Source of the DNA: a virus
IMG/VR virus record: IMGVR_UViG_3300042402_002841
Span: 1-64,000 of that record
DNA length: 64,000 nt
Strand: one strand, 5' to 3'
Made by a program: the position numbers and the translations under genes. Positions 28,356-45,599 of this stretch are shown here, piece by piece (positions within the stretch are counted from its first letter, which is position 1; each line of letters begins with the position of its first letter). Below the pieces are notes generated by a model. It worked only from the letters and a program-made list of their open reading frames with translations, was not told the origin of the DNA and searched no databases.

Positions 28356-31300
28356 ACTACTGCTTCAATTTCTTCTTCTGGTAAAACATTACCACCGTTC
28401 CATGTATCAATAATTTCTCCTTCTCTTATTGGAACAACCCGTATTCCTACTCTTGCAAGCCTTCCACTAATTGACTCAAAATCTTCTTCTGAAATCACAT
28501 TGCTCTGTTCCCAGTCCCAGTCATTTTGTTCACCTACATTGACTACCACATAGTCAACATCACCAAGGCTAACGCCTCCGTGTATCTGTGCTTCTGCATA
28601 CAGTGTTGCTCCTGGCTCAGCAGATGCATCAACGCTAGGAACACCCATAGGAGACGGAATCAATCCTGTTGAGAGACTGTCATGTGTTGTGTATGTTGAG
28701 CGTGAATGTGTATCTCTCTTGAGAACAAACTGAATTTCACCATACTGCTGTATGTCTTTAAGTCTTCTTTCATCAAGAAACCCGCCTTCGCTCAGATAGC
28801 CATAAACGGGGCGCATCTCTGGTGCAGTGCTTGGGTGATAACCAAAGTGTGCAACATCTGTTTGCATTCTTCCTGATGGATGAAGAGTGCCACGAGAAGA
28901 CCTTGTTTCAAATTGTGTTTTAAATCTCCCGTCTTCTATTAACTTGTCAAGAAGTTCAATCGGGAAGGCAATTGCTATATCTGATTTGTCAAGCGCTCTT
29001 TCTGAATTCTTAAGTCTACCTTCAGAACTCCAGATTTCTGGTCTTGTAAGTATTTGGTAATCATAAACGCGTCTGTCTCTAAGGTGTTGAATTATTCCTT
29101 CAGTAACAATATCTACATCATCAGGGCTAAGACCAGCAGAAATAAATTCACTATTCATAGCGAATTGAAGTTCATCATATGTATTCCTCTCTCCTTGACC
29201 CATTACCTGATTAGCCAATTCATAAAATTTTTTATTTGCTTCACGAATTTCATCTGTCAACGGAATATTTAACCTAGCCCGTCTGTCTGCTTCGTCTAGT
29301 AGGTCTTTATTTTCTTCTCTAAACGCTGATGCTTCTTTCATTTTTTCAGCACGAGAATTTACAATCCTGTCGTACTCTACCTGTGTCTTCGGTGGCATTG
29401 TTCCTGGGCGCAGGATAGACAATGGGCGACCAGTGGCTTTGGCTTCTTCGGGGCTATCCGTCGGCTGAAGTTGTCTAGATGAAGAAGCAAGACCACCAGT
29501 AATTGATGCTCTCACGATATCGTTTGTTGCTATGAATTCTCTTTGAGCATTGGTTGAATCGTTGTAGGATACATCGGAGTTTGGTTTTGATGTGTTTCGC
29601 TTCTCAATGAGAGATACTAATTCAGCAACAACATCGTCATCTTCATAAATGATGCCGCTGGAAATACTTTCAAGTATGTACCAATTATCTGGGTCCTGCT
29701 CCATGAACTCTTCACGAGTGGGGGTAAATTCACCTTTGATTCTGCTTGCTTCAAGATTTTGGTACCAAGAAAGTTTAACTCTATTTAATTTTTCTTTAGA
29801 TATGTCGTTTTCTTGTGCCCATCTATCCATAAGAGAAAACATAAAGAGCATATTCGCCCATTCGCCGTGTCTGTCAAACCCTCTACCAGTCCCAACATGG
29901 CCCCAAACATCATGAGCGTCTAGGAACTCGTCAACTCCCGAAAACTGACTTACTTGATTGAGGTTTTGTAATGCGTTTAGCCACATAAATATGTATGTGC
30001 TATTTCCGTCACTTCTAGTTACACTGGCTGGCTTATAACCATCGCTGGGAGAATTATCTTTTGCTATTTTATTAAGCAAATTGAGCGACCATGCAGAGAA
30101 CGAGTCTGAGTCTCTGACTGTTTGAGAAAATCTAACATCATACTGTTGTTGTTCTGACCTATTTCTCCAGTATTCAGATAAACCAGACTTTTTAATTTTT
30201 TCTGTTAACTTCTTATATACCTCACGGATTTGTTCTAACTGTTCACCACTTGGTCTAGACACAGATGACCAATCGGTATCAGAGTCTCCCTCTTTCACTA
30301 AAAGTGGATGTGGTTCTGCATAGGCGTATGGAATACCATCTTCTCCGACTGCTACACGAATAGAATTAAGCAAGCGTTCTCTATCGTTGGATAGCGCAGG
30401 GAGTAAATCAACTTCTTGAAAGTCAATTCCCATCTTGGAAAGAGTTCCGATTATGTCACTAGGAAGTATTGACTCAAGAATGCTTCTTTCGTTATCTGTA
30501 AGTTCCAGTTCTTTAACGATTGATTCTGTGTCAACACTGATTGGATTTATTCTGTCAGTTCTGGAAGCCAGACCTGTTCTAGAAGCCAGACCATTGCGTT
30601 GAACTATGTCGGAAACTTGATTCTGAACATTGCCGACGACACGGGACTGCTGTGGTGTCAATCTCGTAGAAGCAAGACCGCCACGACGGCGCTCCTTGTC
30701 CTGTTCAATAACAATGTCTACCCATCCAGCCCATGTGTCGCTGGCAGGATTGGTTCTTTTATCATTGTTGTCGGCAATCAAGGAGGCGATAGGTGTGTGT
30801 TTACCAACAAGGTGTGTCTCGCCAATAGAGTTCTCTTCCATAGCGTCTTCGCCTATTTTTACCCTAAACAAGTGAATACCAGTAAACGGAGATTTGGCAA
30901 GATTGTCTCCCCATTGTTCTGAGTCCTCTTCTGCGTATCTTCCTCCGTATGAACTGAACAACTCTTGGGACATGGAGGCTCTATATGTACTGGTGTACTG
31001 ATAGTCGTCAGCAATCAACTGGTCGGCTATCTTGTCCAGCCTAGAAAGAATTTTGTTTTCAGAGTCTATTTGATTATTAATCATGCTGATTTTGTATGCG
31101 TCGGCAGTTGCTGTCGGGACATCACCGTCACGGCGAGAGACTCCGAATAGGAGTCTTGCTCTTCCTCCTCTCCACGGGTTTTGGGGGTCGCTTCTACCTA
31201 TCGCTTCAAAGTCAATAACACCATCTCGTTCAGCCTGTAGTTTCATTTCTTCTAAAATAGATAGGTCTCTTCTTGCGTCGTTACGCTTGCCTACTATAAA

Positions 31301-34300
31301 TCTTGCTGTCTCTTCATTTACCCGACGAGTATTACCAGCGGCTACTGCTCCTAACTGTCCTCGTGAACGAGCGGGGTCTAGTTGCCCACCAACCAAGTTA
31401 CTTGCGCCCCAGTGGAGAACATATATGTAACCTTCGTCATCTTTATATATGGCGTCACGCTCATTTGCGGTCATTGACTTAATCAGTGCGTGTCTTCTGC
31501 GAAGTTCGTCTGCTAATTCTTCGTCAGCGAGAAGTTCATCAATTGAGAAACTGTTATTGTTTTGCTCTCTTTTTTCAAGGAAATCAAGTTTTTGTTTCAG
31601 AGTGTCTAGTTCTCTCTCTGCTTCTTCAATCTGTGATTTTCTTGTAAAGCCAGCAGAGTTAATATCATTTATAAGTTTCTGCTTTAATTGCTCAAATGTT
31701 TGACCTTCTTCAAGGCTTGCTTCAAGTTCTTCTCTTGTGTATGTGGTTGGCGGGTGGTTGCCATTCATATCTATGCGTATGTTCCACTTTTGACCTTCCC
31801 AGTTACCTGTCTCCTCAAATTCAGCCCCTGCTGAACGGAGTCTGTTGTTAAGGTCTTCAAGCGCATCAATTTCTTCCTGCTTACTAGCAATAGAGGCACG
31901 CAATTTTGTTTTCGCTCTTTCTGGAATATCTGAGTCGCTTCTTCGCATTGGGGCACTTGTTGACGCAAGACCTGGCATTGAACGCTCATCCATTGAACGA
32001 CGAACTGCTTGGTTGGCTAGTTCTTCTGTTGGGTAGTCACCGAGATAGTCACGACCACGGTAAGCGCCCCATGACGGCTTGCCACCAACCGTGTAGCGAC
32101 GGACATGGTGCTCGTCACCGCTCTTCATCAGGTTGCGAAGGTTTTGTATCGCTGTTCTGCGAGCAAACGCAGTACCCGCATCAACATCTCTGTTCAGGTG
32201 CTCGTCTACTATTTGTGTGAATGCCTTGTAGACACCAACTAATTCCATGTGGTTCATCTTGACTGGTAGTTGCTTTGACCGCTCAAGGAAGTCGTCTATC
32301 CACGGCAAATCAATTGTCTGACCGTAAACATCATCTCTGATTGGGTTAACGAGCAGGTAATCCCTACTCTCGTTAACCAACTTCATGAAATCGTCTCTAA
32401 TTTCTAGGGGGATATCTATGTTTCTATCAAAACTAGAGGCACTCACAAGACCAGTGCGAATACCTTCTGTTGTTGTTCTGTATGGTTCTGACGGGTTTGG
32501 CATTTCACCGAACTCTTTTGCGCCCATCTCTTTGCGCTTAGCGTCAATCTTCTTAATTAAGCGTTGATTGCGAACCCGTGATGCTTCTGCGAGCACAGCA
32601 AAACGCGGACCCAATACTGGGTCGTCAGCAAACGACTCCGCAAGCCAAGATGCGTGCCCGAATGCTATTGGGTATTCACCCCTTGAGAGTTCCTCAACAT
32701 CAATCCAGTTGAATTGGCTGGCGTCGTCGCCTGCCCGTACAACACTTGATTGTTCGTCACTTATGTCAAAACGAATACCCGCAACACGACCACCCTCTAC
32801 GAAGCGAGGGTCCCAGTCTCTAGCGTCTATCTGTCCGAGTATTCTTCTGTCGGTTGCGTCTGTTGGTGAGATATTTACTTCTTCAAGCATCTCTCGTTCC
32901 GCTGTGTCGTAGAGGTCTTCGTTTTCGTCTTGTAGACCGCCAGGTAATGATAGTGCGCCACGGAATGGTCCTCTTTTGCGCTCAATAGTGAGGATTTCTT
33001 TCTTTCCGTCATTGCGTGTGCGTACAACAACTACATCGCCAGCCATAACCTTGTCGGTTTTTGACAAAGACCACTCGTTTGTTGACCATTCAATGTCGTC
33101 ATTATCCATACTTTCATCATTAAATGCTTCCAATGAGACCTCGTGACGCTTTGCTCTATCTTCTATCCGTGAAGACGAAGCAAGACCACCAATTCTTGTC
33201 GGAATGTCAAACTTGTCTATTGCGTCATTGTCTGAACGAAGTTGGCGTGTGATTGATGAATATCTGTGTGTCTCAAAAGCAATATCGTCAATTGCTCTAG
33301 TCTTTTCGCCATATGTAGTGGCTTGCTCAAGGTTTTGACGGGCTTGTTTCACGCTGTTTAGCGACTCCGTCATATTGGCTGTTAGTACGGCGTTGCGTTT
33401 GTTCTTTCTCACCAGAGCGTCACTACCATCAAAACTTGAACCCAATGTTGGGTGGATAACCCGTGATTGTTCCAATTCAATAACTTCTAGACCGTTTTTG
33501 GTCTTGACGCTCTTGACGGTGAATTCACCCGCAGTCAATGCCTCAATCGGCATATCTACTATTCTTCCGTCTCTGTCTTTGGCTGGCTTGGTCACGGGTG
33601 CGTTTGCTACAGCAACACCTTCACGCAGTTTAAGTACGACATTTTTCTTGGTAGATGACAGACCTGATGAAATAGCGTCTGGTAAAGAAACTAAATCATC
33701 GGTTTTTGAGTATTTTACAATGTCGTCGTAGTTAGGACTAAATGAGGTTAACGGCATTGAGATTACAGAACCAATTTGTGGTTCAAATAAACCAGAACCC
33801 GTGTCAACATTTCTCACCGAACGATACAGTGGTGCGTCAGAGGAGTATCCGCCCTCTGCGATTTCCTTCATTGCGGAAATGGTGAACATAGTAGAGCGTT
33901 GTACTTCTTCTTTTGATTGTTCGTTTGCGCTGTTTACTGAACCCGAAAGCAGGTATTGGTTCGTATCCGACCCGTAAGAGTTGTCCCTATCTTCTCTGTC
34001 AATGCCATCAATGCCCATTATTTGACTTGAAATAAAACGCATTCTCCAGTTTTCTACCCCATCAACCCATTGTTCGTAAACCTTATCCATAGCCAAAGGT
34101 TTTTCGTTCATTGAGAATGTGTAGTCGCCAATTGTTGCTGTGGTTAGTCCGTCTCGTACATACACTGAATCTTTTTGCGAGTGAGCCCGCTGAGCCTTCG
34201 GGAATGAGTCTTTATGAGAAGAAACTCTCTTATCAACACTAGATATCGCTATTTGTTTCTTTGCGCTACTTGAAGCGAGTCCTTGTCTTGCTTCCCACGG

Positions 34301-37300
34301 CTTTTGGTACGGAGAAATATCAGGACTTGATTTCAACCCGAAAACATATGCCATTGCGTGTTCAAGTTCTGGTGTTAGATACTGCGCTCTTATGTTTTGA
34401 TTTGGTGTTGTAAAAAGTACATTTAGTTCCGCAAATTGTTCCTGACGGTTGAAGTTTCCGTACTGAACACGAAGCAAAGGCAATAGGTCGCTTGTTAAAA
34501 ACGGATAAAGAGTATTTATTTCTTCAAGAAGGTCATCACCGAAACTTGGTCTCCACCTATCACGACCACTGCTTCTATCTATAAGCGTAGCGGTGTAGGT
34601 ATTCATCATATCTTCAAAGTCTTGGGCTGCCTTATCACCTAGTGTGCGTTGAACTTGTTTTTTTGCGTTAGCAATGATGTAACCAGAACTTTTTGCTGAT
34701 GAGTAAGGAATAAAAGATGTTTTATCAAAGGAATCTTTAATAAACTTTCCAATATTCATTGCTTCTGGGTTACCAGGAAATAGATACGACATTCTGTCGG
34801 CTCTACTTCCAAGAACTCCACTTTTCTTTGCGTAAGAAAGTCCGACCACCCGACTCCAGAAAGAGTGAGCCCATTCGTGATGAATAATTCCTTCTGGTGA
34901 CAAATCAACATTGAGCAAATACGGAGTGCTACCTGGCTCTGGTACACCATAAGCAATGCGATTGTCAGCAGTTTCAAACATTGAAAGATATGGACTTACT
35001 TCTCCTGATTGTGAAGGACTCCTAAACGGGCTTGAATCAAAGTTTAAAAATATTCCGAAAGGACCCATTGACCACCCACCAGTTTCACCACTCCTAACAA
35101 GGGGTGACAAAACGGTAGGACCTAGTAATTTTTCTAACTCCCGTGCTTGCTCAATAGCATCAGGGTCTGTGCCAATGAAACCCGAAGAACCAAATGTTCT
35201 GATTTGCCAAGCGAATAATGGAGATGCGTCTAACGCTCTTTTCAAATACTCTCTTACCCTGTCAACACCTTTTGGTGAAAAATCAGGAAACAACATACCA
35301 TTAGGAGAACCATATCCAAGAAATTGTTCTTCAAAAATATCTTTCAATACAGCAAGTTGAGTAGGCGTGAATTGCGAAGCGTCTTGACCGTAAAGAAGGT
35401 TCATCAAGAAAAGATTGAAGGCATCAGTCTCGCTTCTTACGGAAAGAATGTCTGAAATCTCATCATTTGTTGCGTCTTTCAGATAATCACGACCACCTAT
35501 TGGGCTCAACTCTGATTCTGCGCTAAACAAGTTCGGTATTATTCTGTCGCCCGAACTGTCTCGTGGAATAGAGAATGACGCCAAGCCTGCCCGTGACTCG
35601 TCTATGCCACCTGCGATATCACGCTCATACGAGTACGGCTTACCGATAATGTCAAAAATGTCCTCCCGTAAGGCAGGGCTAACTTTGTCTCTGAAACTTG
35701 CGTCGTTAATAAGTATGCCCGAAACGCCCTCTGCGAACGCTTCTGCTGGCATTGTTTGACCGTATTGAGTCATTGCGTGTGGATAGCCGTTCCATCTTTG
35801 TTGTTTGCCGTCTGCGACTCTTTTGCCAAACTTTTTTGCGCCGATTAGGCGACTTGTGAACTTATCTTTTCCGACATCTACGCCTAAGTCGCCGAGAACT
35901 TTCCATACACCCGTGAGACCTGCGTCGTGTTCCCAAGTGTTTGAAAACCAGAATGTAGCAAGCCTTCTTACTTCTGGGTCTGGGTGATTGGTTATTGCGA
36001 GTCTATTTATGTAGTGCCCCCATTCGTGAGCAAGTAACGCATCTTCACGAGTGGACATCATAAACTGTTCGGTGTTTTTTAGTTTAGGAGAGTTAGGTTC
36101 TACGGCGTTTGTAATTCTGCCTGCGACAAGTTCTTGACGAACATCTTGGTTCACAATGATTGCTGGGAAGCCTTCTATCATTGACACTGCGTTAGTGTTG
36201 TCGCCGTCGTCCCATTCGGCACCACGCTTGGTAATCAGTAGCGGTGGAAATCCGTGACGCTCTACTGCTTCTCTAAATAGTCGGTTGTTTGCGAGAGCAC
36301 CCGTGAGTGCTTGGCGCATTTCTTCCACAATTACTGGAGAAAAGTCAAGCGCCTCAACGCCGTCTTTTATGACACTCTTTATTGCGTCTGGTCTAACGCT
36401 CTTGTCGTCATCATCAAATGCCATAAGTGCTTGGTGTTCTTCTAACGCAAGCATTGCTTCCGCTATGTTTGACGGCACAATAAGGCTCGCCATTTCTGCT
36501 GGCTCAAGCCCTCTCATACCACTACCCGTGGTGCTCTGGCGATTTCCACTAGACGACGCTAGACCGCCACTGCGAACGCCTAAGAATACGCTCTCCACCA
36601 TTTCAGCGCCTGCTGTATTCAGTAGTTCTCTAGTCTTTTTGTTTGGAGAGAAGTAGGCGGCGATTGACTCTCCTACAAACTCAACGGGTGAGGTCGTGCC
36701 ATAACCTGTCTTGACAAACGGTATGTCATCAGTTGGTGGGTCTATCTTGTCATCACTAATAGAAGCGTCTGCGAAGTATCTGTAAAAGTCTCGCAGACCA
36801 CCTGTACGAAGCGACTCCTCTGTTTGCCATTGTGGCGTAAGGTAAGACCACGAGTCGCCATACAGAAGGCTTGCTATCTGTCTTGTCTCTGCGTTGGGGT
36901 GATAGTCCGATGTGAGCCTATGTAGGTAGTGTCCCCATTCGTGCGTTACCGTATCCTCTGCGCTTTCACCTGTGACCCACCGCTTGACTCCCCTGATAGG
37001 CAGTGCGTTCATAGTGTTCATAAACCTATTGCCACCTACTGCGCCAATCAACTTTGACAGTTTCTTGTTTGTAGATTTTGAGTCAATAAGTATTGAGTCG
37101 GTCATAAAGATACCTGAGAAACTATTGTCACCTGTAACCATTGCTATTGGTGGCGCACCAAACCTGTCCCACGAAGCCCGTAAGGCAGGGCGGTCATCTA
37201 GCATTTTCTCAACTATCTGACGCAGTTCTTCAACATCATCAGCGTCAAACGATACGGCATCATAGAGGTCATCAATTCGCAGTTGTCCTCTACTGTGTTG

Positions 37301-37672
37301 TAGGCGTTGCTCTGTGAATGCGATTGGAGTATCAGGCACGACACGCTCTGCTACTTCTCTATTACTAAGACCTACTAGTTGTGACTTGCCATTAGAAAAG
37401 ATACCCGTGGCACCTCCTGCGCTTGCGAGTCCTCCTCTAATTGTTGAGGCAATGTTAGATAATACTGCTGGTCTCTCAAACGGAGTTGAGTCTTGTACGA
37501 GACCGTCACCGTCGCCGTCTTCAGCGTTCGGGTCATAAACCGCTGCGCCTCTTGCTAGTGAACCAATGTTTGCGCCTAGTGCTTTGTACTGTACGCCTTT
37601 GTCGTTATCTCTTGACGAACGACGACGCATACGACTTGATTCATCAGGATTGATTTCATACGAGAAAGGCAT
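28352..37672 (-). CDS. Giant polyvalent protein with GLAS-delimited effector domains
   Basis: 3106 residues from MPFSYEINPDE (a GTG 18 bases upstream also fits; TACAAT six bases before the ATG allows a leaderless mRNA). Order: a DGDGDGLV Ca-loop-like module near 48-70; zincin 1 (HEWGH at 244); zincin 2 (HEWGH at 549); zincin 3 (HEWAH near 931); an ADP-ribosyltransferase-like domain (LYRSV near 1283, SMPLTSFSP, then PIEALTAGEF near 1378); a Nudix box (GLQDENEDLYDTAEREMLEE near 1577); a basic segment near 1870; a coiled coil and HWGAS-type domain (2000-2290); an HDVWGHVGTGRGFDRHGEW domain near 2592; and a DUF3626-like C-terminus (RPVYGYL, YAEAQIHGGV near 3010). The motif GLAS (one GLVS) lies near 83, 370, 697, 1134, 1497, 1744, 1902, 2332, 2362, 2369 and 2728, mostly once between domains. 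Polyvalent proteins are packaged and injected to act on the host. Processing at GLAS is inferred. Confidence 0.85.
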   Translation of the reverse strand: MPFSYEINPDESSRMRRRSSRDNDKGVQYKALGANIGSLARGAAVYDPNAEDGDGDGLVQDSTPFERPAVLSNIASTIRGGLASAGGATGIFSNGKSQLVGLSNREVAERVVPDTPIAFTEQRLQHSRGQLRIDDLYDAVSFDADDVEELRQIVEKMLDDRPALRASWDRFGAPPIAMVTGDNSFSGIFMTDSILIDSKSTNKKLSKLIGAVGGNRFMNTMNALPIRGVKRWVTGESAEDTVTHEWGHYLHRLTSDYHPNAETRQIASLLYGDSWSYLTPQWQTEESLRTGGLRDFYRYFADASISDDKIDPPTDDIPFVKTGYGTTSPVEFVGESIAAYFSPNKKTRELLNTAGAEMVESVFLGVRSGGLASSSGNRQSTTGSGMRGLEPAEMASLIVPSNIAEAMLALEEHQALMAFDDDDKSVRPDAIKSVIKDGVEALDFSPVIVEEMRQALTGALANNRLFREAVERHGFPPLLITKRGAEWDDGDNTNAVSMIEGFPAIIVNQDVRQELVAGRITNAVEPNSPKLKNTEQFMMSTREDALLAHEWGHYINRLAITNHPDPEVRRLATFWFSNTWEHDAGLTGVWKVLGDLGVDVGKDKFTSRLIGAKKFGKRVADGKQQRWNGYPHAMTQYGQTMPAEAFAEGVSGILINDASFRDKVSPALREDIFDIIGKPYSYERDIAGGIDESRAGLASFSIPRDSSGDRIIPNLFSAESELSPIGGRDYLKDATNDEISDILSVRSETDAFNLFLMNLLYGQDASQFTPTQLAVLKDIFEEQFLGYGSPNGMLFPDFSPKGVDRVREYLKRALDASPLFAWQIRTFGSSGFIGTDPDAIEQARELEKLLGPTVLSPLVRSGETGGWSMGPFGIFLNFDSSPFRSPSQSGEVSPYLSMFETADNRIAYGVPEPGSTPYLLNVDLSPEGIIHHEWAHSFWSRVVGLSYAKKSGVLGSRADRMSYLFPGNPEAMNIGKFIKDSFDKTSFIPYSSAKSSGYIIANAKKQVQRTLGDKAAQDFEDMMNTYTATLIDRSSGRDRWRPSFGDDLLEEINTLYPFLTSDLLPLLRVQYGNFNRQEQFAELNVLFTTPNQNIRAQYLTPELEHAMAYVFGLKSSPDISPYQKPWEARQGLASSSAKKQIAISSVDKRVSSHKDSFPKAQRAHSQKDSVYVRDGLTTATIGDYTFSMNEKPLAMDKVYEQWVDGVENWRMRFISSQIMGIDGIDREDRDNSYGSDTNQYLLSGSVNSANEQSKEEVQRSTMFTISAMKEIAEGGYSSDAPLYRSVRNVDTGSGLFEPQIGSVISMPLTSFSPNYDDIVKYSKTDDLVSLPDAISSGLSSTKKNVVLKLREGVAVANAPVTKPAKDRDGRIVDMPIEALTAGEFTVKSVKTKNGLEVIELEQSRVIHPTLGSSFDGSDALVRKNKRNAVLTANMTESLNSVKQARQNLEQATTYGEKTRAIDDIAFETHRYSSITRQLRSDNDAIDKFDIPTRIGGLASSSRIEDRAKRHEVSLEAFNDESMDNDDIEWSTNEWSLSKTDKVMAGDVVVVRTRNDGKKEILTIERKRGPFRGALSLPGGLQDENEDLYDTAEREMLEEVNISPTDATDRRILGQIDARDWDPRFVEGGRVAGIRFDISDEQSSVVRAGDDASQFNWIDVEELSRGEYPIAFGHASWLAESFADDPVLGPRFAVLAEASRVRNQRLIKKIDAKRKEMGAKEFGEMPNPSEPYRTTTEGIRTGLVSASSFDRNIDIPLEIRDDFMKLVNESRDYLLVNPIRDDVYGQTIDLPWIDDFLERSKQLPVKMNHMELVGVYKAFTQIVDEHLNRDVDAGTAFARRTAIQNLRNLMKSGDEHHVRRYTVGGKPSWGAYRGRDYLGDYPTEELANQAVRRSMDERSMPGLASTSAPMRRSDSDIPERAKTKLRASIASKQEEIDALEDLNNRLRSAGAEFEETGNWEGQKWNIRIDMNGNHPPTTYTREELEASLEEGQTFEQLKQKLINDINSAGFTRKSQIEEAERELDTLKQKLDFLEKREQNNNSFSIDELLADEELADELRRRHALIKSMTANERDAIYKDDEGYIYVLHWGASNLVGGQLDPARSRGQLGAVAAGNTRRVNEETARFIVGKRNDARRDLSILEEMKLQAERDGVIDFEAIGRSDPQNPWRGGRARLLFGVSRRDGDVPTATADAYKISMINNQIDSENKILSRLDKIADQLIADDYQYTSTYRASMSQELFSSYGGRYAEEDSEQWGDNLAKSPFTGIHLFRVKIGEDAMEENSIGETHLVGKHTPIASLIADNNDKRTNPASDTWAGWVDIVIEQDKERRRGGLASTRLTPQQSRVVGNVQNQVSDIVQRNGLASRTGLASRTDRINPISVDTESIVKELELTDNERSILESILPSDIIGTLSKMGIDFQEVDLLPALSNDRERLLNSIRVAVGEDGIPYAYAEPHPLLVKEGDSDTDWSSVSRPSGEQLEQIREVYKKLTEKIKKSGLSEYWRNRSEQQQYDVRFSQTVRDSDSFSAWSLNLLNKIAKDNSPSDGYKPASVTRSDGNSTYIFMWLNALQNLNQVSQFSGVDEFLDAHDVWGHVGTGRGFDRHGEWANMLFMFSLMDRWAQENDISKEKLNRVKLSWYQNLEASRIKGEFTPTREEFMEQDPDNWYILESISSGIIYEDDDVVAELVSLIEKRNTSKPNSDVSYNDSTNAQREFIATNDIVRASITGGLASSSRQLQPTDSPEEAKATGRPLSILRPGTMPPKTQVEYDRIVNSRAEKMKEASAFREENKDLLDEADRRARLNIPLTDEIREANKKFYELANQVMGQGERNTYDELQFAMNSEFISAGLSPDDVDIVTEGIIQHLRDRRVYDYQILTRPEIWSSEGRLKNSERALDKSDIAIAFPIELLDKLIEDGRFKTQFETRSSRGTLHPSGRMQTDVAHFGYHPSTAPEMRPVYGYLSEGGFLDERRLKDIQQYGEIQFVLKRDTHSRSTYTTHDSLSTGLIPSPMGVPSVDASAEPGATLYAEAQIHGGVSLGDVDYVVVNVGEQNDWDWEQSNVISEEDFESISGRLARVGIRVVPIREGEIIDTWNGGNVLPEEEIEAVV

Positions 37673-37912
37673 TGACTTATTGTAGAACACCTATCACGAT
37701 AGTGTATGAAGGTGTTACGAATGACTAGTGATTGTGTGTGTATTTGTTTGTGTGTGTGTTTTTGTTTGTGTCGTGAGCAGTGCCATACGAGCGTGTGCGG
37801 TTGCGATTACGAATCACTCTTAGCACATCTGTAATCGTTTGTCAAGTATTAGGTGAAACTATTTTTTGACCTCGTGAGCAGGTATCGTTATGCCACTGTC
37901 GTTGGCTTGACT

Positions 37913-37980
37913 TTATCCACAGACTTGTTCACAGCCTGTGGATAACTTTGTCCACACCCTTATACACAGCCTGTGGACAA
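37913..37980. promoter_or_regulatory. Cluster of six DnaA boxes
   Basis: TTATCCACA (37913), TTGTTCACA (37925), TGTGGATAA (37937, reverse), TTGTCCACA (37948), TTATACACA (37960) and TGTGGACAA (37972, reverse). Boxes 2-3 and 5-6 pair into two 21-bp inverted repeats with the common core CACAGCCTGTG. Confidence 0.75.
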
Positions 37981-38320
37981 CCACACTGAGTGGCTGGCGG
38001 TCACTGTCCGTAACCCACATCTCGGGGCTTTTTCTGGACACATAGGGCGCGCGTGGGGGGACCAGTACAGGTTTTTGAGGTTCCCTCATCATCAGAAAGA
38101 TTTATCTAAACCGCATGGGGTCTGGCGTGGTATTTAAGTCGTGTGTGCGGCGAGCGTGTATGACTCTCGTGTCGTAGTTGTTGTTCTCCACTACCGTATT
38201 CTTGCCGTTTTAGCGTACATGGTAGGGATTACAGGGCCGTTTATCCGTTTTCGCATTTTACAGGGACCCCCTAAAATACAAAATAGCGTTGTGTGGTGGT
38301 GGATAAATTTATCTAATGTG

Positions 38321-38355
38321 TTGTGAAAAAACATCATGAATGGTAGAGTATGTGA
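38321..38355 (+). promoter_or_regulatory. Leaderless sigma-A-like promoter
   Basis: TTGTGA, 17 bp, TAGAGT, then six bases to the ATG at 38356. Not of the repeat class. Confidence 0.55.
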
Positions 38356-38868
38356 ATGGCTATTAGAACTTTTGTTATTGCAGATACCCACTGGAGCCAA
38401 GAGAGCGTGTGCGAGTATTCAAAGAAGCACGACAACAAGATGCGTCCGTGGGATTCCGCCGAAGAGATGGACGAGGCGATGATTGAGTTGTGGAACGAAA
38501 CTGTGCGCCCCAAGGATAAGGTGATTCATCTTGGTGATGTGTCGCCCTATGAGAGCGGTGTGCGGATTACTGGCTATTTACATGGTAGGCACACTCTAAT
38601 AAAGGGCAACTACGACAGACTTTCTCTTTCACTGTATGCCGAGTACTTTGATGACATATTTGGCTGCTTGTCTCTGGATAGATTTATCTTAAGTCACATA
38701 CCAGTATCCGACCATCAGAAGTACAGGTATAGAGGGAACATCCATGGACATCTTCACTGCGAGTCCTTAGAAGACCCTTGGTATCAGTGTGTAAGCGTTG
38801 AGCAGACAGAATTTAAACCAATCTTGCTTGATGAGGTAAAAGCACGATACGATGTCCGCAATGCCTGA
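38356..38868 (+). CDS. Metallophosphoesterase (calcineurin-like)
   Basis: 170 residues. IADTHW near 8, HLGDVSPYES near 57, KGNYDR near 80, LSHIPV near 114 and GNIHGHLH near 130 are the metal-binding motifs of the family (D-x-H, G-D, G-N-x-D, H, G-x-H). Phage members are used in nucleotide or RNA turnover; the substrate cannot be told. Probably leaderless. Confidence 0.88.
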   Translation: MAIRTFVIADTHWSQESVCEYSKKHDNKMRPWDSAEEMDEAMIELWNETVRPKDKVIHLGDVSPYESGVRITGYLHGRHTLIKGNYDRLSLSLYAEYFDDIFGCLSLDRFILSHIPVSDHQKYRYRGNIHGHLHCESLEDPWYQCVSVEQTEFKPILLDEVKARYDVRNA

Positions 38869-39505
38869 ATTAAACGCTAACACGCCACCCATTCACTGTT
38901 ATGTGAGAGGGAACTTCCTGACAAACCAAAAACATAGTCACGACCTAAAGTTTCCTGTTGTTATCTTTGGTGTTGCGTCTATAACCGACAGGGCACCAGT
39001 TTTCCACTTCTTGATGGAAGATGGGGGGATTTGGTGGAGAGCGCCAATTAATGCTTTCTGCATGTACGAGGACAGCCCTATTGTGGACATTCATGACTTA
39101 GTAATGTGGAACTGCTTCTCTCCGTACATCACCGTTACAACATTTGAACATATGCGAGGTAGGTCAATGACTTATGTTGACCGCCACAGAAAAGATGTGA
39201 ATGGTAAGTACATGTTCACTCTTGACTGGCACCACCCAGATAACAACATTGTTGACTCTAATTACTCAATAAATTCAGCCAACCACAAGTGCGGTCATGT
39301 TATTGAGCGTGAAGATGGCAACTTTGCTATCCAACCAAACAATCGTGTCCACCTTTGGGACCCCTCCCACACAACCAAGAAGGGCGTTCATCTAATTGAC
39401 CGTGAAGTAAGTGACTATATTTGGGGCGTAGAAGACGGCTCTAAATGGCTCACCTCTGACGATAATTTGTATCACTACGACATTCAGGATGTGGAAAATG
39501 GCTGA
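38852..39505 (+). CDS. Conserved phage protein, unknown
   Basis: 217 residues overlapping the phosphoesterase end; MPELN at 38861 is an alternative start. Beta-rich with many His and Trp (HKCGHVIEREDGNFAIQPNNR). I recognise the general pattern from phages, but no function is known. Overlaps the next start (ATGGCTGA). Confidence 0.65.
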   Translation: MSAMPELNANTPPIHCYVRGNFLTNQKHSHDLKFPVVIFGVASITDRAPVFHFLMEDGGIWWRAPINAFCMYEDSPIVDIHDLVMWNCFSPYITVTTFEHMRGRSMTYVDRHRKDVNGKYMFTLDWHHPDNNIVDSNYSINSANHKCGHVIEREDGNFAIQPNNRVHLWDPSHTTKKGVHLIDREVSDYIWGVEDGSKWLTSDDNLYHYDIQDVENG

Positions 39506-43177: not shown

Positions 43178-43480
43178 ATGTTTAGAGATTCATCTGTGGA
43201 AAAACTTGGGGATAACATTTCCATTTTAAGAGCAACTCGTGAGGCTTGTCCAGTGTGTGGACATCCTACTGGTGATTGCGATGGAGACAGTGGGCCACCA
43301 CAGAAAATTGTTGGTCTTGGAAATGTTATTGAATCATTAAAAGAGTCACAGACAGTTCTTGTTGAAGAAAATATTTATGAAGACCGCCAAATTACACCGT
43401 TTACAAAAGCAAAAGTAATAATTCATCACAAGGGTTCCTACATAACCCTTGAGCAAGCAAAAAATTTGGGCATTGCTTAG
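43178..43480 (+). CDS. Small zinc-knuckle protein, unknown
   Basis: 100 residues from MFRDSSVEKLGDN (a GTG 15 bases upstream is possible). CPVCGHPTGDCDGDSGPP is a conserved-looking Cys cluster. The C-terminal KAKVIIHHKGSYITLEQAKN is beta/alpha. Adjacent to the ribonucleotide reductase gene. Function unknown. Confidence 0.6.
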   Translation: MFRDSSVEKLGDNISILRATREACPVCGHPTGDCDGDSGPPQKIVGLGNVIESLKESQTVLVEENIYEDRQITPFTKAKVIIHHKGSYITLEQAKNLGIA

Positions 43481-43553
43481 ACAGGGGCAATTGCTCATCT
43501 ACCTGTATCATATACTTCTCGCAAGTTTAAAAAACAGAAAGTGGAGTATCAAG

Positions 43554-45599
43554 GTGTCTTCCTTTTTTTCATTCCGTCTATCAGAAGATTTCATAAACAG
43601 TTACAAAGATAAGAAATCTCCATTTGGTTATGTTGATGCGGGTGGAAATTCCGTTGGGGAAATTACTTTTCTTCGCACATACTCACGCTTAAAAGAAGAT
43701 GGCACAAAAGAAACATGGGTTGATGTTTGTGAGCGTGTTATTAACGGCATGTACTCACTTCAAAAAGACCATTGCAAATCAAATCGTCTTCCGTGGAATG
43801 ATTCAAAAGCGCAAGCCAGCGCAAAAGAAGCCTTTGAACGCCTCTTTCAGTTGAAGTGGACTCCACCAGGTCGTGGTCTTTGGGTTATGGGAACACCTTT
43901 GGTGAATGTTCAAAAGAACTCCGCTGCTCTTCAGAACTGTGCGTTTGTTTCAACTACCGAAATGACAAAGAACAACCCTGCAAAACCTTTTGCTTTTCTC
44001 ATGGAAGCATCAATGCTTGGTGTTGGCGTTGGGTTTGACAATAAGGGCGCAGACAAAGACTTCACCATCTACGAACCAACAAAGCCAGCAGTTACCGAGG
44101 TGATTGAAGATAGCCGTGAAGGATGGGTTGCTTCACTTGTATCCATCATTAACTCATATTTAAAGGCCGACCAGAGTCCTGTTGAATTTGATTACTCTCT
44201 TATCCGTCCTGCTGGAACACCAATCAAAACATTTGGTGGAACAGCCGCAGGGCATGCGTCTCTTGAGCGCTTACATAACCACATTCGTTCAATGTTTAAG
44301 GGTCGCAACGGAGAAAAGTTAACACGAGTAGATATTGCTGATATCGGAAACATGATTGGTGTTTGTGTTGTTTCTGGAAATGTTCGTCGCTCTGCTGAAT
44401 TACTAATTGGAAGTCTTGACGATAAAGATTTCTTAAACCTCAAAAACTCTGCAGTATTTCCTGAACGCAATTCATATGACGCAGATGCTCCAGGCTGGGG
44501 ATGGATGTCAAACAACTCTGTAGAAACATCTGTCGGGAAAGACCTTTCTGGAATTGTTGAAGGGATTGCACTTAATGGAGAGCCTGGAGTTATTTGGCTT
44601 GACATGTCTCGCAAGTACGGTCGTTTGGTTGACCCAGTAAACAACAAGGACTGGCGTGTTGCTGGTTACAATCCATGTGCAGAGCAGTCTCTTGAGTCTT
44701 ACGAATGTTGCACTCTTGTTGAAACATATCTGAACCGACATGAATCTTTGGACGACTACAAGCGCACACTCAAGTTTGCTTACTTGTACGCAAAGACCGT
44801 GACTCTTCTTCCTACACACTGGGAGGAGACAAACGCAATCATGCAGCGCAACCGTCGCATCGGTGCGTCAATGTCTGGTGTTGCAAACTTTGCTGACCGT
44901 GTAGGTATGCCAGTTCTTCGTGAATGGATGGATACTGGATACAACACGGTGAAAGCATACGATGTTTCTTACTCTGAGTGGCTTGGGATTCGTGAGTCAA
45001 TCAAGATGACGACAGTAAAGCCTTCAGGGACTGTTTCAATCCTTGCTGGTGAGTCTCCTGGAGTTCACTGGACACCAGGCGGAAAGTTCTTCAACCGAGC
45101 AATCCGCTTCGCAAATGATGACCCAATGCTTCCTTTGTTCAAGATGGCTAACTACCGTGTTGAGCCAGCATCAGAGTCTCCAGATACAACCTCTGTCGTA
45201 TTTTTTCCAATCAAGTCAGATGCGGAACGAGCAGAGAACGATGTAACTATCTTTGAGAAGATGTCTCTTGCTGCAGTTGCTCAGCGTTACTGGTCAGATA
45301 ATTCGGTGTCGGTTACTATTTCTTTTGATGCAGAAAAAGAAAAAGAACATATAGGCACTGTTCTTCATATGTATGACGGTCAACTTAAGACTGTTTCATT
45401 TTTACCTCAAGGTAATTTCACTTATCCGCAAATGCCTTATACGCAGATAACTGAAGAGGAATATCTTGAAGAAACCAATAATCTTTTCCCTATTGACTTT
45501 ACAGGTGTATACGCTGGAATGGCTGCCGATGCAATTGGGGAGTCTTATTGCACTACGGACTCCTGTGAGATAAAATTAATCAAGGACAATCAGGGGTAA
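43554..45599 (+). CDS. nrdJ: Adenosylcobalamin-dependent ribonucleoside-triphosphate reductase
   Basis: 681 residues from GTG with GGAG seven bases upstream; the longer upstream frame has no SD. Landmarks: PPGRGLWVMGTP, NCAFVSTT with the first redox Cys, SGNVRRSAELLIG, the substrate-site NPCAEQSLESYECC, the finger VKPSGTVSILAGESPGVHW, and a C-terminal CTTDSCE pair. The size and single-subunit layout fit monomeric class II RNR. It makes deoxynucleotides without oxygen-dependent radicals and relies on host vitamin B12. Isolated on the plus strand. Confidence 0.92.
   Translation: MSSFFSFRLSEDFINSYKDKKSPFGYVDAGGNSVGEITFLRTYSRLKEDGTKETWVDVCERVINGMYSLQKDHCKSNRLPWNDSKAQASAKEAFERLFQLKWTPPGRGLWVMGTPLVNVQKNSAALQNCAFVSTTEMTKNNPAKPFAFLMEASMLGVGVGFDNKGADKDFTIYEPTKPAVTEVIEDSREGWVASLVSIINSYLKADQSPVEFDYSLIRPAGTPIKTFGGTAAGHASLERLHNHIRSMFKGRNGEKLTRVDIADIGNMIGVCVVSGNVRRSAELLIGSLDDKDFLNLKNSAVFPERNSYDADAPGWGWMSNNSVETSVGKDLSGIVEGIALNGEPGVIWLDMSRKYGRLVDPVNNKDWRVAGYNPCAEQSLESYECCTLVETYLNRHESLDDYKRTLKFAYLYAKTVTLLPTHWEETNAIMQRNRRIGASMSGVANFADRVGMPVLREWMDTGYNTVKAYDVSYSEWLGIRESIKMTTVKPSGTVSILAGESPGVHWTPGGKFFNRAIRFANDDPMLPLFKMANYRVEPASESPDTTSVVFFPIKSDAERAENDVTIFEKMSLAAVAQRYWSDNSVSVTISFDAEKEKEHIGTVLHMYDGQLKTVSFLPQGNFTYPQMPYTQITEEEYLEETNNLFPIDFTGVYAGMAADAIGESYCTTDSCEIKLIKDNQG

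What the first reader, a model, noticed from the sequence alone, without database searches (positions are those of the whole stretch)
37673..38355. Candidate origin with paired DnaA boxes between divergent genes
Six DnaA-box-like 9-mers lie within 68 bp, four of them forming two 21-bp inverted repeats around CACAGCCTGTG, next to a GT-rich tract. DnaA-box clusters are unusual in tailed phages that carry their own primase-helicase, and suggest host DnaA use or plasmid-like replication.
Basis: partly seen in the sequence, partly recalled or inferred. Interest (0 to 1): 0.62.

Follow-up and report, generated by a model that had tools for sequence, protein, structure and literature searches.

The report
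Phage docking site for host DnaA
An uncultured phage, probably of actinobacteria, carries a compact, evolutionarily kept cluster of binding sites for DnaA, the protein with which bacteria start copying their chromosome, so the phage probably borrows that protein to start or time its own replication or gene expression.

Summary
Six DnaA boxes (TTRTNCACA) fill 37913-37980, 12/12/11/12/12 bp apart, as two 33-bp triads, each ending in a 21-bp inverted pair; only six other boxes lie in the whole 132-kb record. In related contigs with an uninterrupted interval between the 9.3-kb leftward gene and the phosphoesterase gene, one or two such pairs sit there although the surroundings have diverged; one sub-lineage with an inserted gene has lost them. 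The record looks like an actinophage myovirus; no pol A, B or C and no DnaA was found. The same pair occurs about once per genome in 25 of 198 actinobacteria; of four sites checked, three lie in the rpmH-dnaA region and one between dnaA and dnaN. One host copy matches the phage 21-mer exactly. I read it as a host-DnaA binding site. Replication origin is my first choice for its role, but skew and unwinding signals do not support it, and DnaA-controlled divergent transcription is nearly as likely. The claim that such clusters are unusual in phages is wrong: at least 119 viral contigs and several cultured Streptomyces and Lactococcus phages have related sites.

The parts
37913..37945 (+). DnaA-box triad 1: TTATCCACA-GAC-TTGTTCACA-GCC-TGTGGATAA (+,+,-; 12-bp offsets)
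   Evidence: Sequence. The last two boxes form inverted pair 37925-37945; the identical 21-mer lies just 5' of a dnaA gene in an actinobacterial genome (L602).
37948..37980 (+). DnaA-box triad 2: TTGTCCACA-CCC-TTATACACA-GCC-TGTGGACAA (+,+,-; 12-bp offsets)
   Evidence: Sequence. The last two boxes form inverted pair 37960-37980; 35 bp start-to-start from triad 1.
37925..37945 (.). 21-bp inverted DnaA-box pair 1
   Evidence: equivalent pairs in L489-L495
37960..37980 (.). 21-bp inverted DnaA-box pair 2
   Evidence: equivalent pair in L404, 1 mismatch
37733..37771 (+). GT-only tract, two imperfect copies of TGTGTGTGTATTTGTTTG
   Evidence: G+T-rich stretch at the equivalent place in relatives (0.59-0.65)
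37820..37845 (-). Putative promoter of the leftward giant gene: TTGACA-N14-TGCTAA (extended -10), about 70 bp from the nearest box
   Evidence: Only match in the 132-kb record; conserved in L404, L489 and L490, not in L491 and L493
38020..38060 (.). Most conserved non-coding block of the interval, TCTCGGGGCTTTTTCTG...GGGCGCGCGTGGGGGG, function unknown
   Evidence: Alignment A1; of 8 viral loci with the first half, 6 are of this clade with DnaA boxes just 5' of it, 2 are unrelated
38302..38316 (.). GATAAATTTATCTAA palindrome-like element upstream of the phosphoesterase gene, probably a promoter or operator
   Evidence: same or similar element in L404, L485 and L488
28355..37672 (-). Leftward flanking gene, 3106-aa protein with NUDIX and DUF3626 domains
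38356..38868 (+). Rightward flanking gene, calcineurin-like metallophosphoesterase
38852..39505 (+). PurM-like/phrog_3704 protein, next gene of the rightward unit
43449..45599 (+). B12-dependent-type ribonucleotide reductase in the rightward gene block
24714..26435 (+). Primase-helicase (Toprim plus AAA_25)

Best explanation
The interval is a cis-acting docking site for the host's DnaA, and its most likely job is to be, or to be part of, the phage's replication origin. DnaA would bind cooperatively to the six phased boxes (two triads, each ending in a high-affinity inverted pair), remodel the DNA next to the G+T-rich stretch, and give entry to the phage primase-helicase (24714-26435) and a replisome that would have to be mostly the host's, since no pol A, B or C family was recognised. 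Shown: the boxes, their phasing, their conservation by position, the match to actinobacterial dnaA-promoter and oriC sites, and no hit for three polymerase families or the DnaA ATPase domain. Inferred: binding by DnaA, strand opening, helicase loading, and that replication starts here.
For: Box cluster far beyond chance. Positional conservation in the clade with diverged flanks: L404, L489-L495 and L589 carry one or two inverted pairs, 33-35 bp apart where there are two, between the same two genes. Differences between the window and L404 fall mostly at positions the DnaA consensus leaves free. The 21-bp pair occurs about once per genome in 25 of 198 actinobacterial genomes, reversed-pattern control 0; of four sites checked, three lie between rpmH and dnaA and one between dnaA and dnaN, with dnaA confirmed by Pfam Bac_DnaA; one is an exact copy of phage pair 1. 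TTGTCCACA is the high-affinity box of Streptomyces and Mycobacterium (PMC4285127). No pol A, B or C and no Bac_DnaA domain in the record; in relatives no pol C (0 of 20), no pol B (0 of 15), and pol A only in the remote G017 (1 of 15). The boxes lie outside the conserved leftward promoter. In the L489 sub-lineage a 3.9 x 15-bp iteron-like array adjoins the boxes. In the remotely related G016 about 20 boxes crowd into 530 bp. In cultured Karimacviruses a box pair sits in a 1.3-1.4-kb AT-richer gap between convergent genes, where promoters are not expected.
Against: Cumulative GC skew has its minimum at 76 kb and maximum at 28 kb, follows gene orientation, and codon-3 skew does not switch at 37.9 kb. 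No strongly unstable stretch adjoins the boxes; the least stable one is about 320 bp away beside the phosphoesterase start. I saw no DnaA-trio array by eye. The sub-lineage L485/L486 keeps the surroundings but has only one perfect and one one-mismatch box. Fourteen of 20 records of more distant relatives, some over 150 kb, lack the pair, so the trait is not essential to the wider family. The interval is a divergent promoter region, and the pair has the geometry of dnaA-promoter sites.
Confidence: 0.42

Rival explanations
1. DnaA-controlled divergent promoter. Host DnaA bound upstream of the leftward giant gene and the rightward phosphoesterase/PurM-like/RNR block activates or represses them, so that the phage reads the host's replication state, as DnaA does at dnaA and nrdAB and as CtrA does in alphaproteobacterial phages.
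For: The interval is divergent; the pair matches sites in dnaA promoter regions of actinobacteria; a conserved TTGACA-N14-TGCTAR promoter lies about 70 bp from the boxes; a ribonucleotide reductase lies in the rightward block, and DnaA regulates nrdAB in E. coli (PMC8203912). Of 69 intergenic viral sites classified, 32 are divergent and 6 convergent. The remote relative G019 has many box pairs scattered between genes. Phages with host-CtrA sites in promoters are a demonstrated precedent (PMC9437464).
Against: Boxes overlap neither predicted promoter and lie 320 bp or more from the phosphoesterase promoter element in the window. Distance to the phosphoesterase start varies from about 170 to 375 bp between lineages. 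Six phased boxes are more than a dnaA-promoter site seems to need. Karimacvirus boxes lie between convergent genes. Gene calls behind the divergent count are crude.
Confidence: 0.33
2. DnaA sponge. The cluster titrates host DnaA as phage copy number rises and so blocks new rounds of host chromosome replication.
For: High-affinity-type pairs, conserved; six boxes per genome would compete with oriC after a few dozen phage copies (inference; cluster size).
Against: Only one small cluster in a 132-kb genome, and only three or four boxes in relatives. A sponge would be expected to have more sites and no fixed position.
Confidence: 0.1
3. Operator of a phage-encoded protein (repressor, ParB-like or terminase-associated) that only resembles DnaA boxes.
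For: The record encodes a ParB_N-domain protein (L320:17122-17904) and another DNA-binding domain protein. A GC-rich block next to the boxes is conserved even better than the boxes. The palindromes can also fold as hairpins.
Against: The sequences match the DnaA consensus base by base, including boxes outside the inverted pairs, and an identical 21-mer lies before a bacterial dnaA gene.
Confidence: 0.1

Closest known systems
DnaA-box pairs of the dnaA promoter region (rpmH-dnaA) in actinobacteria, e.g. the Streptomyces lividans autoregulatory site
   Same: Inverted pair with 3-bp spacer in a divergent intergenic region; one exact 21-mer match. DnaA binding and autoregulation at its promoter are reported for S. 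lividans (PMC8203912).
   Different: Phage site has two pairs plus two further phased boxes, and no dnaA gene follows.
Bacterial oriC (DnaA-box array between dnaA and dnaN)
   Same: Several phased boxes in non-coding DNA; the same pair lies between dnaA and dnaN in L611.
   Different: Only 68 bp long, no evident AT-rich unwinding element or DnaA-trio, no skew switch.
DnaA-box sites in cultured large phages: Streptomyces Karimacvirus (Wofford, Karimac, IchabodCrane), Lactococcus phages 949 and AM4
   Same: Inverted or phased boxes in the longest non-coding gap of the fetched stretch; Karimac reads TTATCCACA-GGT-AAGTACACA-GGT-TGTGGATAA, the same three-box register.
   Different: Karimacvirus gaps lie between convergent genes; Karimac has its own DnaE polymerase; no origin is annotated in the stretches I read.
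Host-CtrA sites in alphaproteobacterial phages ('lytic deferment')
   Same: Phage intergenic region dense in binding sites of a host cell-cycle regulator, arisen in several lineages (PMC9437464).
   Different: CtrA binding and promoter control were shown by experiment; here the protein is DnaA and nothing has been tested.
Phage lambda origin with DnaA-assisted transcriptional activation
   Same: Host DnaA takes part in starting phage replication (PMC8203912).
   Different: Lambda has its own initiator O with iterons (own knowledge); no initiator recognised here.

Membership tests
Host-DnaA binding site (actinobacterial type) | Multiple boxes matching TTATCCACA/TTGTCCACA, at least two closely spaced | tested here: met
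   Six boxes in 68 bp, four of them perfect
Host-DnaA binding site (actinobacterial type) | Same arrangement found at known DnaA sites of the host group | tested here: met
   Inverted pair in 25 of 198 genomes; rpmH-dnaA (L601, L602, L613) and dnaA-dnaN (L611)
Host-DnaA binding site (actinobacterial type) | Binding by DnaA protein | not testable with these tools
   Needs EMSA or footprinting; host species unknown
oriC-type DnaA-dependent origin | DnaA-box cluster in non-coding DNA, conserved by position | tested here: met
oriC-type DnaA-dependent origin | AT-rich unwinding element and/or DnaA-trio next to the boxes | tested here: not met
   Stability profile: nothing unusual beside the boxes; least stable 60-mer about 320 bp away; trios looked for by eye only
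oriC-type DnaA-dependent origin | Strand-composition switch at the site | tested here: not met
   weak test for a phage because skew follows gene orientation
oriC-type DnaA-dependent origin | Replication actually starts here | not testable with these tools
   Needs marker-frequency data
Iteron-type plasmid or phage origin | Tandem iterons beside the boxes | tested here: not met
   None in the window; 3.9 x 15 bp in L489 only
Iteron-type plasmid or phage origin | Cognate Rep initiator gene | tested here: inconclusive
   None among the larger proteins annotated; Bac_DnaA domain absent; small ORFs not all scanned
DnaA-regulated promoter | Boxes placed at or upstream of promoters of divergent genes | tested here: met
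   Conserved leftward promoter about 70 bp from boxes; divergent genes
DnaA-regulated promoter | Transcription responds to DnaA | not testable with these tools
   Needs reporter assays

The most novel reading that the evidence does not exclude
A clade of large actinophages without a recognisable DNA polymerase or initiator starts its replication from a miniature host-type origin built from two copies of an actinobacterial dnaA-promoter-type DnaA site, so that phage replication is tied directly to the host's initiation licence; related sites in unrelated Streptomyces and Lactococcus phages would make this a recurrent strategy.
Probability: 0.22. Interest if true: 0.72.

Novelty: new variant of a known kind. 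Interest (0 to 1): 0.47.

Why it matters
How large lytic phages choose where and when to start replication is poorly known outside a few models. A compact, conserved host-DnaA site in a phage clade, with related sites in cultured Streptomyces and Lactococcus phages, gives a directly testable case of phages using the host's replication initiator, either as initiator or as a cell-cycle signal. It also supplies a simple sequence signature (TTRTNCACA-N3-TGTGGAYAA, alone or as a three-box unit) for finding such sites.

Tried and rejected
Chance occurrence was rejected. A host dnaA fragment was rejected: no dnaA or rpmH signature in the 119 viral loci with the 21-mer, and no Bac_DnaA domain in this record. 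A known RNA element was rejected: no Rfam hit, E up to 1. An intrinsic terminator at 38020-38040 was not supported by the scan, although relatives show a CCCCG...CGGGG stem before a T run (by eye). GC skew was tried as origin evidence and gave none. The 667-bp interval has no distant blastn match in cultured phages, and plasmid matches to the boxes are weak and in unrelated bacteria. Two of the nearest cultured relatives by capsid, GMA6 and Cantare, have a DNA polymerase gene (annotated DnaE in Cantare) and no cluster. A query with the giant protein's N terminus found only a near-identical contig; first attempts with a wrong frame failed. Packaging-site (cos/pac) function of the GC-rich block was considered, but there is no evidence for it.

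Full report
What is there. Six 9-mers fitting TTRTNCACA lie in 37913-37980 with starts 12, 12, 11, 12 and 12 bp apart and orientations ++- ++-. They form two 33-bp triads; the last two boxes of each triad form a 21-bp inverted pair with a 3-bp GCC spacer. The 132-kb record holds only 12 such boxes in all; its rest, 64001-132392, has one. Chance is excluded.

Whose phage. The window is the first 64 kb of an IMG/VR record of 132,392 bp classed as linear, so it may be incomplete. Portal, capsid, prohead protease, terminase and tail sheath make it a myovirus. Its capsid protein is 46-48% identical to those of Gordonia and Brevibacterium phages; a DUF2510 domain and a weak proteasome-subunit match also point to actinobacteria (the lineage link of these domains is from my own knowledge). 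The host itself is unknown. It has a primase-helicase, a SNF2-type helicase, a Rad52-like protein and a ribonucleotide reductase, but no pol A, B or C domain and no Bac_DnaA domain. In relatives: no pol C in 20, no pol B in 15, pol A in one of 15, a remote one (G017). A divergent polymerase cannot be excluded.

Conservation. The same gene order with a DnaA cluster between is found in L404, L489, L490, L491, L492, L493, L494 and L495, at least four sequence types besides the window; L589 shows a further partial copy. L489-L492 have two inverted pairs 33 bp apart, the window two 35 bp apart, L493 and L404 one clear pair plus further boxes. In random shuffles of the interval such pairs are not seen at up to three mismatches. 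The alignment shows boxes retained while most of the interval has changed. Three other features are kept: a G+T-rich stretch after the leftward start (0.59-0.65; the window value is in the top 0.1% of its genome), a promoter-like TTGACA-N14/15-TGCTAR reading leftward in the window, L404, L489 and L490 but not in L491 and L493, and a GC-rich block at 38020-38060 that is conserved better than the boxes and has been found with boxes only in this clade. In the sub-lineage L485/L486 another gene has entered the interval and only one perfect box remains. Fourteen of 20 records of more distant relatives have no pair anywhere.

Host parallel. In 198 genomes of one actinobacterial class the pair TTRTNCACA-N3-TGTGGAYAA occurs in 25, about once each, and the reversed control pattern never. 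Of four loci checked with Pfam, three place it between rpmH and dnaA and one between dnaA and dnaN (dnaN inferred from gene order). One genome carries the exact phage pair TTGTTCACAGCCTGTGGATAA directly in front of dnaA (L602). TTGTCCACA is listed as the high-affinity box of Streptomyces coelicolor and Mycobacterium tuberculosis (PMC4285127), and direct DnaA autoregulation is reported for Streptomyces lividans (PMC8203912). This makes host DnaA by far the most likely ligand.

How widespread. The GCC version of the pair occurs in at least 119 IMG/VR contigs (the scan hit its limit). Within 100 bp of it there are on average 1.4 further boxes against 0.03 expected from the rest of the same loci, and none of these loci bears a dnaA or rpmH signature. 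Among cultured phages, Streptomyces Karimacviruses have a box pair in a 1.3-1.4-kb AT-richer gap between convergent genes, and Lactococcus phages 949 and AM4 have seven and four boxes in gaps of 1-1.5 kb. In the remote relative G016 about 20 boxes lie in 530 bp, and in G019 box pairs are scattered between many small genes.

Origin or promoter. For an origin: one dense cluster, non-coding, conserved by position, outside the conserved leftward promoter, iteron-like repeats beside it in one sub-lineage, no recognised polymerase or initiator, and convergent-gap sites in Karimacviruses. Against: no skew switch, no unwinding element beside the boxes, loss in one sub-lineage, and absence from the wider family. 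For transcription control: divergent genes, dnaA-promoter geometry, a nearby promoter, an RNR gene in the rightward block, more divergent than convergent sites among viral loci, and scattered pairs in G019. DnaA control of nrdAB (PMC8203912) and CtrA control of phage promoters (PMC9437464) are precedents. I give origin 0.42, promoter 0.33, sponge 0.10, another ligand 0.10. The first two are not exclusive: in lambda, DnaA acts on transcription at the origin (PMC8203912).

Limits. Gene calls on fetched contigs are simple longest-ORF calls. Relatives are metagenome contigs, some nearly identical to each other, so the number of independent lineages is small. The absence of a polymerase rests on three Pfam families and a possibly incomplete record. 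Nothing here shows binding or replication.

Noticed in passing
L581:15400-15926 (G016, 128,966-bp viral contig): About 20 DnaA boxes in 530 bp, plus further pairs nearby: an oriC-sized array in a remotely related phage.
   Followed up: partly
L583 and L584 (G019, 60,401-bp viral contig): Many DnaA-box pairs at 12-bp offset scattered between small genes over about 26 kb, more like a regulon than an origin.
   Followed up: partly
window 38020-38060: GC-rich block TCTCGGGGCTTTTTCTG...GGGCGCGCGTGGGGGG, the best conserved non-coding sequence of the interval and restricted to this clade; possibly a terminator, packaging or origin element.
   Followed up: partly
window 38302-38316, also 38095-38109 and 38677-38691: Repeated AT element (GATAAATTTATCTAA and variants), four matches against 0.5 expected, just upstream of and inside the phosphoesterase gene; also upstream of that gene in L404, L485 and L488.
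   Followed up: partly
L489:4710-4768: Iteron-like array, 3.9 copies of GTACATGTGTTCGTC, directly beside the DnaA boxes in one sub-lineage; absent from the window.
   Followed up: no
L323:1643-2257 (record 125643-126257): Protein with a short, weak match to the proteasome subunit family (Pfam PF00227) in a phage record.
   Followed up: no
L322:6045-7562 (record 110045-111562): Tryptophan-halogenase-like protein (phrog_2928) in the phage record.
   Followed up: no
window 28355-37672: 3106-aa protein with internal NUDIX and C-terminal DUF3626 domains, probably a virion-associated multi-domain protein; its N terminus had no relative beyond a near-identical contig in the scan.
   Followed up: no
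L603 and L606 (actinobacterial genomes): Long palindromes with an inverted DnaA-box pair roughly 140 bp beyond the expected 3' end of rpmH rather than before dnaA.
   Followed up: no
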